Positions 12,419-16,245 of a stretch of 64,000 nt of DNA are shown piece after piece. Source of the DNA: Gaiella occulta. GTDB taxonomy: Bacteria > Actinomycetota > Thermoleophilia > Gaiellales > Gaiellaceae. Made by a program: the position numbers and the translations under genes. Under the pieces are notes generated by a model. It was not told the DNA's origin. It did no database searches and saw nothing but the letters and a program-made list of their open reading frames with translations. Numbering within the stretch: the first letter of the stretch is position 1; every line of letters starts with the position of its first letter. The DNA lies in the NCBI RefSeq assembly GCF_003351045.1, contig NZ_QQZY01000003.1, forward strand, positions 248,001 to 312,000, in the 5' to 3' direction.

Positions 12419-14221
12419 GTGAGTGCCGATAACGCCGTCAGGCCCCGACCGTACCCTGGCGTGTTCCTCCTTCCCTCCATCCTCGTCGGAATCGTCGTCG
12501 CTCTTGCTGCGGGCGGCGACCTCAACCGCCTGGCTGCGGTCGACTTTCGCCGCCCGTGGCTCGTCGTCGTGGCGCTCGGTGTCCAGGTGGCGCTGTTCTC
12601 GCAGCTCGGCAGCCATGTCCCGGGCGGCGTGCGCGATCTGGCGCACGTCGGCACGTACCTGCTGCTGATCGCCTTCGGGCTCGCCAACCGCCGCATCCGC
12701 GCGCTGGCGCTGATGCTCGCGGGCACGGTCATGAACGCGCTCGTCGTCGCCGTGAACGGCGGCAGGATGCCCCTGTCGCCGGGTGCGGCCGAGGCCGCGG
12801 GAATCTCGCCGCAGGCGTATGCGAACGTCTCGCAGCAGGCGTCGCGTCTGCGCTGGCTCGGAGACGTCTTCGCGCTGCCCGACGCTCTGCCGCTCGCGAA
12901 CGTCTTCTCCCTCGGAGATCTCCTGATCGGCGTGGGAGCCGTGTGGCTGATCGCCGCCGCCGCCACCGTCGGCGTCGAGGCGCGCATCGTCGTCACGCGG
13001 CGTCTGCTCGAGCCGCTGCGGCTCCCGGAGGTGGCCCGCCTCACGGCCGGCAAGTTCGTCTCCCAGGTCGGCGACTGGCTCACGATCGTGGCGCTCGTCG
13101 GCTGGATCTACTCCCGGGGCGCCTCCACGTCCGCCGTCGCGCTGCTGCTGCTCGTGCGCATGGCGCCGCCGGTGGTCGGGGGAAGCCTGGCCGTCTTCGT
13201 CGTCGAGCGCCTGCCGGTGGCGCGACTGCTACCGGCGGTCGAGCTCGCCCGCGGGCTCATCGTCGCTGCCGCCCTCGCGGCGACGCTCGCCGGATCCGAG
13301 GTCCTCGTGATCACGGCTCTCGCGCTCTCCGGCATCCTCGCCGCGCTGAGCGCCGCGGCGACCCCGGCGGTGCTGCCGTCGATCGTGGCCCCGAACGTGC
13401 TCGTCGCGGCGAACGCCGCGATCGGGATGACGAAGAGCCTCGCGATGGCGGTCGGCGCCGGCGCAGGAGCGCTCGCGCTTGCGCGCTTCGGGGTCGTCAC
13501 GTCCCTCGTGATCGACATTGCCACGTTCGCAGTGGCGTTCGCGCTCTTCGCGCGCCTGCGGATCGCCGACACCCCGCGGTCGAGAGCGGCGGCCCGGCGA
13601 CAGCGGCCGTTCGAGCGTGTCCGTTACCTCGTCAGCCACCGGCAGTCGGGGCTGCTGATCCTCTGCTTCTCGGTCGCGACGTATGCGACCGGCCTGACGA
13701 ACGCGAGTCTCCCGCGCTACTTCGACCACCTGGGTGGCCCGGCTGCGTCGTACGGCTTCGCGATCGGCGCCCTCGCCGCGGGCCTGACCGCGGGGGAGAT
13801 CTTCGTCGCGTCCACGAGCAGCGGTTCGGCGCCCTCGCGCTGGATCGGACTGGGCCTGCTCGGGATGGCCGTTCTCTTCGCGATGATGGCGGGAACGACG
13901 CAGGTGGCGATGGCGGTGCTCCTGCTCGCGGGCGTCGGGTTCATCGACGGCACGACGGACGTCTTCTTCGATACGACACTGCAGCAGACGACCGAGTCGT
14001 CGCGTCTCGCGACCGTCTTCGGCGCCTCGGCGGCGACCACGGCGACGACGATGGTGCTCGGGGTCGCTTCGGCGCCGCTGCTCGCGGGCGTGCTGGCGCC
14101 GCCTCAGGTGTTCGGCGTGGTCGCGCTCGCGCTGGCCGCCGCCGGGGCGATCGGGCTGCTCGCGGCGTCGACGCGACCAGCTCCCGTGCCGTCTCCTGCC
14201 GCTGCCGAGGAGGGCGGATGA
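12419..14221 (+). CDS. DUF5317-MFS fusion membrane protein
   Basis: A 600-residue membrane protein with two parts. Residues 1-190 match DUF5317, a short helical membrane family marked by VNGGRMP and a late NVFSLGDLLIGVG motif. Residues about 205-590 form an MFS-type transporter (AGKFVSQVGDWLTIVAL, then about 12 helices) related to MFS proteins that begin with a motif around a membrane-embedded Asp. The GTG start has no clear ribosome binding site. The stop overlaps the next start (ATGA), so it is co-translated with the HD-GYP protein. What it transports is not visible. Confidence 0.8.
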   Translation: MSADNAVRPRPYPGVFLLPSILVGIVVALAAGGDLNRLAAVDFRRPWLVVVALGVQVALFSQLGSHVPGGVRDLAHVGTYLLLIAFGLANRRIRALALMLAGTVMNALVVAVNGGRMPLSPGAAEAAGISPQAYANVSQQASRLRWLGDVFALPDALPLANVFSLGDLLIGVGAVWLIAAAATVGVEARIVVTRRLLEPLRLPEVARLTAGKFVSQVGDWLTIVALVGWIYSRGASTSAVALLLLVRMAPPVVGGSLAVFVVERLPVARLLPAVELARGLIVAAALAATLAGSEVLVITALALSGILAALSAAATPAVLPSIVAPNVLVAANAAIGMTKSLAMAVGAGAGALALARFGVVTSLVIDIATFAVAFALFARLRIADTPRSRAAARRQRPFERVRYLVSHRQSGLLILCFSVATYATGLTNASLPRYFDHLGGPAASYGFAIGALAAGLTAGEIFVASTSSGSAPSRWIGLGLLGMAVLFAMMAGTTQVAMAVLLLAGVGFIDGTTDVFFDTTLQQTTESSRLATVFGASAATTATTMVLGVASAPLLAGVLAPPQVFGVVALALAAAGAIGLLAASTRPAPVPSPAAAEEGG

Positions 14222-16245
14222 CGGGGCGCGCGCAGGCGCTGCGGGCGCTGGCCCGCCGCTCGGGCGCCGCCGGCCTGCCCGGCCGGGCGCTCGTCATCGT
14301 CGCAGCCGTCACTGCGGCCGGATCCGGCTCCCTCGGGCTGTTCGCGTTCTACGGCAGCGACGACTGGTCGACGCTGGCGCTGCTGATGGCCGCCGCGCTG
14401 ATCACCGAGTGGCTGAACGTCCCTGGCGACGAGGATCCGCTCGACGCCGCAGGCGCTCAGGCGTTCAGCTTCTCGTCGGGCATCCATATCGCCGCGGTGG
14501 TGCTCGTCGGCCCGTTCGCCGCCGGGTTCGTCGCGGTGTTCGCGCTCCTCGTCGCCGATCTGCTGCGGCGCGAGTCTCCCGTGAAGATCGCGTTCAACGC
14601 GAGTGTCTTCGCGCTCGCGAGCGTCGCCGCCGGCGGCGCGTTCGTCGCGGCCGGCGGCACCGTGGGGTCGATCGCTCTGCCGGACGACCTGGTCGCCCTC
14701 GCCGCGCTCTGGCTCGCGTACACCACGGTCAACACGTTGCTCGTGAGCATCCTCGTGAGCACGATCACGCACGTGCCGCTGACGCTCCTCCTCGACCAGA
14801 AGCTCCGCAGCGAGTTCGCGTCCGCGGCGGGCGAGGCGGGGGTCGGTCTCTCGTTTGCCCTCTTCGTCCAGATGAACGGCTGGGGCACGGTGTTCCTCAT
14901 TCCGCTCGTGTTCGGCGTCTACCAGGCGCGCGCGAGACTCGCCCAGCTCCGCATCGAGACGGCCCGCTCGCTCGAGACGTTCGCGAACGTGGTCGACGAG
15001 CGCGACCCGAGCACGCACCGCCATTCGGAACGGGTCGCCGTGAGCGTGCGCGAGCTCGCGGTGGCGCTCGACCTGCCCACCACCAGCATCCTCACGCTGC
15101 GCTGGGCCGCCCGCCTCCACGACCTCGGGAAGATCTCCGTCGACTCGTCGATCCTGATGAAGCCCGGCAGGCTCGCCGACGAGGAGTGGAAGTCGATGCG
15201 CCGCCACCCGCGCCTTTCCGCCCGGCTCCTGCGCAGGTTCCGCTTCGCCGCCCCCCATACGCGCGCCGTCGAATACCACCACGAGCGCTTCGACGGACGT
15301 GGCTACTACGCCGTGCCGCCGGAGGCGATCCCGATGGAGGCGTACTTCATCGCCGTCGCCGACAGCTTCGACGCGATGGTCTCGGATCGCCCCTACCGCT
15401 CCGGGCTGCCGGAGGAGACCGCTCTCGCGGAGATCGAACGCGGAGCCGGAACCCAGTTCCACCCCCTCGTCGCCAGGGCCTTCGTCGCGCTCAAGCGGGG
15501 CCTCGACCCGAAGGACGTGCTGTCGCCCGAGGAGCTGCGTTCCCTCGCCGAGCCGTTCACGTCGCAGCACGACCTCGACCTGCGATCGATCGCGTCCGCC
15601 GTCCGCAACTCCCGCCTGTGGGTGCTCGTGGTGACGATCGCCGCTTCCCTGGCCGCGCTCGCCTCGGGCCGGGCGCCCGTCATCCTGTCGGCGCTGGCAA
15701 CGCTTGCCGTCGTGCTGGCTGCGCTGATTGCCGAGCGTTTCCGCACCCTTTCTCTCGCACGGCAGCTTGCGGCGCAGAGCAGTGCAGGCTCCGGAGCGGA
15801 CAGCCCGCTCTCCCTGCTGCGGGCCGCCCTCGCCGCCGCCGCGCGTCCGACATGGGCGGCGCTCGTCGAGTGGGACCCGCAACGCCTGGAGGGTCGTGTC
15901 GTATCGGAAGTCGGGACGGCGGGCAATCGGGCCTCGGAGGAGAGGATCGTCTCCTGGCTCCTGCGCGACGCCGACGACGGCGCGGGCCTGCTCCGGCGCG
16001 AGGGCGACGAGCTCGACGGCGCGTGGCTGGCGCTGCGGCTCGCGTCTCCGGCTGCCGTCGAGCAGTTCGCCGTCTTCGCCTTCGCACACACGCCCGCACG
16101 CTGGCTCGAAGCCGCGCTCCTGCGGGCGCGCACGGATATCGCCGACATGCTCCTTCCCCCCGGCGCCGCCCCCGTGCCGCCGGTCGGTCCTGCCGGCTCG
16201 GGACGCCGGGCTCCGGTCCTTGAGTCGCGTCCGCAGGAGGGCTGA
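14218..16245 (+). CDS. membrane-anchored HD-GYP domain protein with C-terminal sensor-like region
   Basis: A 675-residue protein. An N-terminal block of about eight helices (residues 20-235) resembles a MASE-type membrane sensor. A cytosolic HD-GYP phosphodiesterase-type domain follows (about 260-430) with RLHDLGK, the extended motif HHERFDGRGYY (GYP varies to GYY) and ADSFDAMVSDRPY. After two more helices (about 465-505) comes a 120-residue GAF-like tail. HD-GYP domains hydrolyse cyclic di-GMP in other bacteria; all visible metal-ligand histidines are present. It is translationally coupled to the DUF5317-MFS fusion. Confidence 0.88.
   Translation: MTGRAQALRALARRSGAAGLPGRALVIVAAVTAAGSGSLGLFAFYGSDDWSTLALLMAAALITEWLNVPGDEDPLDAAGAQAFSFSSGIHIAAVVLVGPFAAGFVAVFALLVADLLRRESPVKIAFNASVFALASVAAGGAFVAAGGTVGSIALPDDLVALAALWLAYTTVNTLLVSILVSTITHVPLTLLLDQKLRSEFASAAGEAGVGLSFALFVQMNGWGTVFLIPLVFGVYQARARLAQLRIETARSLETFANVVDERDPSTHRHSERVAVSVRELAVALDLPTTSILTLRWAARLHDLGKISVDSSILMKPGRLADEEWKSMRRHPRLSARLLRRFRFAAPHTRAVEYHHERFDGRGYYAVPPEAIPMEAYFIAVADSFDAMVSDRPYRSGLPEETALAEIERGAGTQFHPLVARAFVALKRGLDPKDVLSPEELRSLAEPFTSQHDLDLRSIASAVRNSRLWVLVVTIAASLAALASGRAPVILSALATLAVVLAALIAERFRTLSLARQLAAQSSAGSGADSPLSLLRAALAAAARPTWAALVEWDPQRLEGRVVSEVGTAGNRASEERIVSWLLRDADDGAGLLRREGDELDGAWLALRLASPAAVEQFAVFAFAHTPARWLEAALLRARTDIADMLLPPGAAPVPPVGPAGSGRRAPVLESRPQEG

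What the first reader, a model, noticed from the sequence alone, without database searches (positions are those of the whole stretch)
12419..14221. DUF5317 fused to an MFS transporter and coupled to an HD-GYP protein
DUF5317 is usually a small standalone membrane protein. Here its 190 residues precede a full MFS domain in one frame, and the stop overlaps the start of a membrane HD-GYP gene. This suggests a transport or sensing module tied to cyclic dinucleotide turnover.
Basis: partly seen in the sequence, partly recalled or inferred. Interest (0 to 1): 0.65.

Follow-up and report, generated by a model that had tools for sequence, protein, structure and literature searches.

The report
Membrane partner of c-di-GMP signalling enzymes
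A membrane protein of unknown function (DUF5317), here joined to a transporter-like domain, sits beside a membrane-bound signalling enzyme in bacteria of several phyla, so it is probably a signal-input partner of such enzymes, which nobody appears to have described.

Summary
Window 12419-14221 encodes one 600-aa protein: DUF5317 (PF17248, E 2e-28) followed by a complete 12-helix MFS domain. Its stop overlaps (ATGA) the start of a 675-aa membrane HD-GYP-like gene. It is not a sequencing error: the same fusion recurs in relatives at least as far as Acidimicrobiia.

In 80 named loci (Actinomycetota, Chloroflexi, Bacillota, others), 52 of 154 immediate neighbours of DUF5317 are GGDEF, EAL or HD-GYP enzymes, against 3 of 376 farther genes. 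Nearly all partners whose N-terminus is in view share one N-terminal multi-helix domain, MASE9-like (MASE9L). The output behind it varies: HD-GYP, GGDEF-HD-GYP, GGDEF-EAL, histidine kinase, SpoIIE phosphatase. One Chloroflexi protein carries DUF5317-MASE9L-GAF-GGDEF-EAL in a single chain. DUF5317 is therefore best read as a membrane partner of MASE9L signalling enzymes. In the window it has gained an MFS domain, resembling the UhpC-UhpB transceptor-kinase pair.

Complex formation, ligand and direction of signalling are inferred. Two caveats: the window enzyme has GYY instead of GYP, and MASE9L also occurs without DUF5317. No held paper mentions DUF5317 or MASE9.

The parts
12419..14221 (+). 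DUF5317-MFS fusion gene, 600 aa
   Evidence: open frame; Pfam; AF2 model pLDDT 88, pTM 0.85
12467..12970 (+). DUF5317 domain, 5 TM helices (residues 17-184)
   Evidence: Pfam 41-178 E 2e-28; AF2 of the domain alone pLDDT 91.7, pTM 0.85
12755..12772 (+). NGGRMP motif (residues 113-118), start of the long loop between TM4 and TM5, predicted extracytoplasmic
   Evidence: N113, G115, P118 invariant and M117 nearly invariant in 67 rows; topology from positive charges and the cytoplasmic N-terminus of MFS (general knowledge)
12908..12919 (+). SxGD motif (residues 164-167) at the start of TM5
   Evidence: invariant S164, G166, D167 (the search pattern also contained this motif)
13025..14167 (+). MFS domain, 12 helices (residues about 203-583), altered motif A (ERLPVARLL)
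   Evidence: PF07690; Foldseek MFS hits; motif A comparison
14218..14221 (+). ATGA overlap of stop and start
   Evidence: sequence
14218..16245 (+). membrane HD-GYP-like gene, 675 aa: MASE9L - HD domain - 2 TM - C-terminal soluble part of unknown family
   Evidence: two hydrophobic stretches at residues 466-504
14287..14952 (+). MASE9-like membrane domain shared by the partners of DUF5317
   Evidence: Pfam MASE9 25.1 bits; alignment A3; genome search
14977..15465 (+). HD_5 (HD-GYP-type) domain
   Evidence: PF13487 E 1e-26; residues H269, H301-D302, H330, H354-H355, D382 present
15301..15309 (+). GYY in place of GYP (residues 362-364)

Best explanation
DUF5317 is the membrane partner of signalling enzymes that carry a MASE9-like (MASE9L) sensor domain. 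In the window it is fused to an MFS domain and co-transcribed with the enzyme. The proposed mechanism: the MFS domain and the extracytoplasmic loop of DUF5317 (NGGxMP, SxGD) recognise or follow the passage of an extracellular solute; DUF5317 contacts the MASE9L domain in the membrane; the conformational change is passed to the cytoplasmic HD domain and changes the rate of c-di-GMP breakdown. Shown here: the fusion, the operon-like overlap, the recurrence of the pairing, the constant MASE9L domain with changing outputs, and one natural single-chain fusion. Inferred: co-transcription, physical complex, topology, sensing role, direction of the signal, ligand, and phosphodiesterase activity.
For: (1) 24 of 25 order-level DUF5317 loci have a GGDEF or HD-GYP enzyme within 600 bp; the 25th is the window's own copy, whose 1.5-kb flank was too short to show its partner. 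(2) In 80 named loci 52/154 immediate neighbours are such enzymes against 3/376 farther genes (odds ratio 63, p 1e-27). (3) In the 80-locus set and in the window, the partners whose N-terminus is in view carry MASE9L with one exception (L098, GGDEF only), whatever the output. (4) L111 is one chain of DUF5317-MASE9L-GAF-GGDEF-EAL. (5) A DUF5317-MFS fusion is paired with HD-GYP (window, L002, L091), GGDEF-EAL (L153) or a MASE9L histidine kinase (L160). (6) All 20 DUF5317 genomes of the order also have MASE9L (94 of 129 have it; p 0.001). (7) Enzymes that neighbour the order-level fusion on the same strand share GYY, unlike the others. (8) Precedents: UhpC, an MFS protein, senses G6P and stimulates the multi-TM kinase UhpB (PMC7607045); the MASE1 domain of DgcE is a docking site for an activating partner (PMC6510439); the transporter DctA is a cosensor of DcuS (PMC3892338).
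Against: No interaction, transport or enzyme data. MASE9L is far commoner than DUF5317, so it does not need DUF5317. About a quarter of the 80 loci, mostly Chloroflexi, have neither a c-di-GMP enzyme nor MASE9L nearby. The MASE9L profile was built from partner proteins; Pfam's independent MASE9 model matches several of them only near its cut-off, and some not at all at E 0.1-1. The window enzyme lacks the P of GYP and one of the eight metal ligands of PmGH (S for E185), so its activity is uncertain.
Confidence: 0.6

Rival explanations
1. The signal runs the other way: the enzyme, by local c-di-GMP turnover or by contact, gates the MFS transporter through DUF5317, so DUF5317 is the coupling piece of a regulated efflux pump.
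For: A complete MFS fold related to exporters: TIGR00900 80.9 bits, far below its cut-off of 319.6; MFS_3 in L153 and L160. The TM1 SxxGDW motif is kept in nearly all fused proteins.
Against: Most DUF5317 proteins have no MFS domain (107 of 122), yet keep the same enzyme partners. Motif A is altered in the fused MFS proteins of the order.
Confidence: 0.15
2. DUF5317 is a folding, insertion or stability factor for MASE9L proteins, without a sensory role.
For: Small, strictly membrane protein; stand-alone genes mostly directly beside the enzyme; fits all output types equally.
Against: MASE9L proteins without DUF5317 are common, so there is no general need for a helper. Conserved polar residues in a long, probably extracytoplasmic loop look more like a binding site.
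Confidence: 0.15
3. Neighbours share a pathway but do not touch: DUF5317 makes, modifies or moves a small molecule that the MASE9L enzyme senses.
For: Fusion to a transporter; conserved N, D, S, G residues; loci without a MASE9L gene nearby.
Against: Single-chain fusion with MASE9L in L111; no enzyme-like fold among PDB matches, which is inconclusive.
Confidence: 0.1
4. The fusion is a sequencing or assembly artefact.
For: None found.
Against: The same architecture occurs in independently assembled relatives and codon periodicity is unbroken.
Confidence: 0.01

Closest known systems
UhpC-UhpB (E. coli; MFS transceptor plus multi-TM histidine kinase)
   Same: An MFS protein and a polytopic membrane signalling enzyme as partners; UhpC senses G6P and stimulates UhpB (PMC7607045). 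L160 even has a MASE9L histidine kinase beside DUF5317-MFS.
   Different: UhpC has no DUF5317 part (general knowledge), UhpB's sensor is of another MASE type (general knowledge, not tested here), and the window's output is an HD-GYP-like enzyme. Function here not tested.
DgcE MASE1 with its partner RdcA (E. coli)
   Same: A MASE membrane domain of a c-di-GMP enzyme as docking site for a partner that feeds in a signal (PMC6510439).
   Different: RdcA is a dynamin-like GTPase, not a membrane protein of the DUF5317 type; MASE1, not MASE9L.
DctA-DcuS (E. coli transporter as cosensor)
   Same: A transporter that regulates a membrane sensor kinase (PMC3892338).
   Different: Contact through a PAS domain; DctA is not MFS (general knowledge).
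PF17248 DUF5317
   Same: The N-terminal domain is a clear member (99.7 bits).
   Different: Usually stand-alone, about 180-210 aa; here fused to MFS.
PF20972 MASE9
   Same: The window enzyme matches just above the cut-off (25.1 against 24.3 bits); L115 at 35.1 bits.
   Different: Most partner proteins tested match below the cut-off; they form a wider MASE9-like group.

Membership tests
DUF5317 (PF17248) | profile score over the gathering cut-off | tested here: met
   99.7 bits, cut-off 25
DUF5317 (PF17248) | conserved N, NGGxMP, D and SxGD residues | tested here: met
   N90, N106, N113-P118, D149, S164-D167; part of this is imposed by the search pattern, but the profile hits show them too
Major facilitator superfamily | profile score over cut-off and 12-helix MFS fold | tested here: met
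   59.7 bits, cut-off 33.4; TM-score by target up to 0.86
Major facilitator superfamily | motif A (D-R-x-x-R-R type) between TM2 and TM3 (common, not required for membership) | tested here: not met
   ERLPVARLL in the window, DRxxRR in most ordinary MFS proteins of relatives
Major facilitator superfamily | transport activity | not testable with these tools
   needs a transport assay
HD-GYP phosphodiesterase | HD_5 profile and metal ligands | tested here: met
   94.2 bits, cut-off 27.2; seven of the eight PmGH ligand positions read as kept, E185 replaced by S (motifs, ligand list; positions matched by eye)
HD-GYP phosphodiesterase | GYP motif | tested here: not met
   GYY at 362-364, hence 'HD-GYP-like'; in PmGH the P286A change kept activity (PMC4159591)
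MASE9 (PF20972) | profile score over cut-off | tested here: met
   25.1 bits, cut-off 24.3: marginal
UhpC-type transceptor system | MFS protein binds and regulates a membrane signalling enzyme | not testable with these tools
   gene neighbourhood and domain make-up only
UhpC-UhpB family by descent | partner enzyme with a MASE1 domain | tested here: not met
   the partner matches MASE9, and no MASE1 match was listed at E up to 1

The most novel reading that the evidence does not exclude
DUF5317 and MASE9L form a widespread two-part membrane receptor, so far undescribed, in which one sensor pair is plugged into different outputs (c-di-GMP synthesis or breakdown, phosphorelay, phosphatase) and in which MFS carriers were captured, possibly more than once, as the ligand-recognising part.
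Probability: 0.4. Interest if true: 0.8.

Novelty: new variant of a known kind. Interest (0 to 1): 0.62.

Why it matters
It gives a family of unknown function with members in many bacterial genomes a concrete, testable role, and it offers an entry to how MASE-type membrane domains, whose inputs are mostly unknown, receive signals. Named organisms (Solirubrobacter phytolaccae, Kineosporia species) carry simple versions, so the idea can be tested without the source organism of this window.

Tried and rejected
Sequencing error: rejected (recurrence, codon periodicity). Chance adjacency: rejected. 'DUF5317 is specific to HD-GYP': rejected, because other outputs occur with the same MASE9L domain. 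'MASE9L always needs DUF5317': rejected (94 against 20 of 129 genomes). I first noted that only one of the seven HD-GYP genes of this genome carries MASE9L; the alignment search found a second, weak one (48 bits). Known fold for DUF5317: no Foldseek hit at E below 1 and no VIA-align Z above 5.7, so no known fold can be named. Model of the L111 chain to see the DUF5317-MASE9L contact: not run, because MAFFT laid MASE9L rows on the DUF5317 half. One single MFS fusion event: the MFS tree shows two fused groups, but a single clade is not rejected (AU p 0.23); the DUF5317 tree needs 7 changes of the fused/single label, so the number of fusion events is open. The first alignment A1 was too diverse for a genome scan.

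Full report
1. The observation. The frame 12419-14221 (+) encodes 600 aa. Pfam finds DUF5317 at residues 41-178 (99.7 bits) and MFS_1 at 210-538 (59.7 bits). The stop TGA overlaps ATG at 14218. The second gene, 675 aa, has a MASE9 match (25.1 bits, cut-off 24.3) and HD_5 (94.2 bits). It is the only DUF5317 gene of this genome. The genome has 7 HD-GYP genes and 8 GGDEF matches in 3.03 Mb. Codon periodicity is unbroken over the joint, and linkers of 15-33 aa recur in other fused proteins.

2. The fold. AlphaFold2 on the window protein with 66 relatives gives pLDDT 88.3 and pTM 0.85: five helices for DUF5317, an amphipathic linker helix, then 12 MFS helices. The best PDB matches are MFS proteins such as VMAT1 (TM-score by target up to 0.86). 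DUF5317 alone is predicted well (pLDDT 91.7, pTM 0.85) but has no match among solved structures: Foldseek E above 2, VIA-align Z at most 5.7. Charges are concentrated at the 31-46, 88-95 and 185-202 loops. With the MFS N-terminus cytoplasmic (general knowledge), this places the long TM4-TM5 loop with NGGRMP, D149 and the start of SxGD outside (inference).

3. The neighbourhood in the order. DUF5317 occurs in 20 of 129 genomes of the order. In 24 of 25 loci a GGDEF or HD-GYP enzyme lies within 600 bp; the exception is the window's own locus, whose short flank cuts its partner off. About a third of the copies are MFS fusions (window, L002, L003, L005, L007, L009, L010, L013). The rest are mostly stand-alone genes behind a GGDEF-HD-GYP enzyme. 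Most partners lie upstream. In G026 the fusion is flanked by two such enzymes. The window enzyme is 45% identical over 590 aa to the upstream one and 56% over 283 aa to the downstream one.

4. The neighbourhood elsewhere. A scan of GTDB genomes gave 80 named loci in Actinomycetota, Chloroflexi, Bacillota, Armatimonadetes, Acetothermia, Acidobacteriota and Deltaproteobacteria (names as in the record titles; at least one MAG label, 'Acidobacteriota' L132, is a copy of an order-level locus by sequence). Within 600 bp of DUF5317, 55 of 80 have a GGDEF, EAL or HD-GYP enzyme. Counting genes, 52 of 154 immediate neighbours are such enzymes against 3 of 376 farther genes (odds ratio 63, p 1e-27). These loci are related to one another, so the p-value overstates independence; the spread over phyla and over output types is the stronger argument. 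The scan pattern (P[LMA]xNVFS[VIL]GD) selects one part of the family. The profile-based sample of the phylum (107 of 396 genomes) shows the same partners, besides loci with short flanks or none visible.

5. What the partners share. In the 80-locus set and the window, the partners whose N-terminus is in view carry the same membrane domain, here called MASE9L, with one exception (L098, GGDEF only). Pfam's own MASE9 model matches several (35.1 bits in L115, 25.1 in the window, 24.7 in L160), others only weakly or not at all. Behind MASE9L come HD-GYP, GGDEF-HD-GYP and GGDEF-EAL, HisKA histidine kinases (L160, L143), a HisKA_3 kinase (L062) and SpoIIE phosphatases (L086, two copies). L061 has a weak HD domain behind a similar-looking membrane region (the membrane part judged by eye). 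L111 from Chloroflexi is a single chain of DUF5317, MASE9L, GAF, GGDEF and EAL. The constant partner of DUF5317 is thus the membrane domain, not the enzyme.

6. The dependence is one-sided. MASE9L is found in 94 of 129 genomes of the order, DUF5317 in 20, all of which have MASE9L (p 0.001). In this genome MASE9L occurs twice, the second time weakly, in front of another HD-GYP gene.

7. The MFS part. Fused MFS domains form two groups in the tree: one in this order, one in the other fused Actinomycetota (Acidimicrobiales and unnamed families). A single clade is not rejected (AU p 0.23). A close unfused relative exists in G035, next to a MASE9L-HD-GYP gene pointing towards it. Motif A is altered in the order's fused proteins (ERLPVARLL, DRIPGFKAL, NRIPQFRTL), while the other fused group mostly keeps DRxxRR. 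This fits, but does not prove, a sensing rather than pumping role.

8. The enzyme. All HD enzymes found beside the order's same-strand fusions have GYY where other HD-GYP proteins have GYP: window, L002, L003, L005/L091 (both copies), L007, L009, and L004 and L006 of the same clade (L020 has GYL). The divergent partner in L103 keeps GYP. In PmGH the P to A change in GYP kept activity, and in RpfG the GYP motif was needed for GGDEF contact but not for hydrolysis (PMC4159591). So the window enzyme may be active, but this is untested.

9. Mechanism. The best reading is a membrane signal-input complex: DUF5317, here with an MFS domain, on the MASE9L domain of an enzyme. Known parallels are UhpC-UhpB (PMC7607045), RdcA on the MASE1 domain of DgcE (PMC6510439) and DctA-DcuS (PMC3892338). 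Shown: architecture, pairing, swapping of outputs, one natural fusion. Inferred: contact, topology, sensing, direction, ligand.

10. Novelty. No paper in the held open library contains 'DUF5317' or 'MASE9'; subscription papers are not covered. Transporter-coupled signalling is known, so this is a new variant of a known kind.

Noticed in passing
L111:5001-8162: A single Chloroflexi protein of 1053 aa joins DUF5317, MASE9L, GAF, GGDEF and EAL.
   Followed up: yes
L086:5001-9100: DUF5317 followed by two tandem MASE9L-SpoIIE phosphatase genes (Actinobacteria FK_Sedi_B_Bin.58), an output unrelated to c-di-GMP.
   Followed up: partly
window:15301-15309; L002, L003, L004, L005, L006, L007, L009, L091: GYP to GYY change in the HD enzymes that neighbour DUF5317-MFS fusions of this order.
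   Followed up: partly
window:15600-16242: The C-terminal part of the HD gene has two hydrophobic stretches and a soluble region of about 170 aa without any Pfam match.
   Followed up: no
window:16327-17560 (-): A second MFS gene (MFS_1, 96.9 bits), not a close relative of the fused one by eye, lies convergent and directly downstream of the HD gene.
   Followed up: no
window:17591-19532: A MerR-TOBE regulator, an SBP_bac_11 binding protein and a permease in a row; looks like a molybdate-type ABC operon.
   Followed up: no
L089, L099, L101, L113, L125, L126, L147: Chloroflexi clade with stand-alone DUF5317 in a partly conserved neighbourhood without any MASE9L or c-di-GMP gene within 5 kb.
   Followed up: partly
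L227:7145-9770: Unfused close relative of the window's MFS domain, convergent with a MASE9L-HD-GYP gene that looks frameshifted, in a genome without DUF5317.
   Followed up: partly
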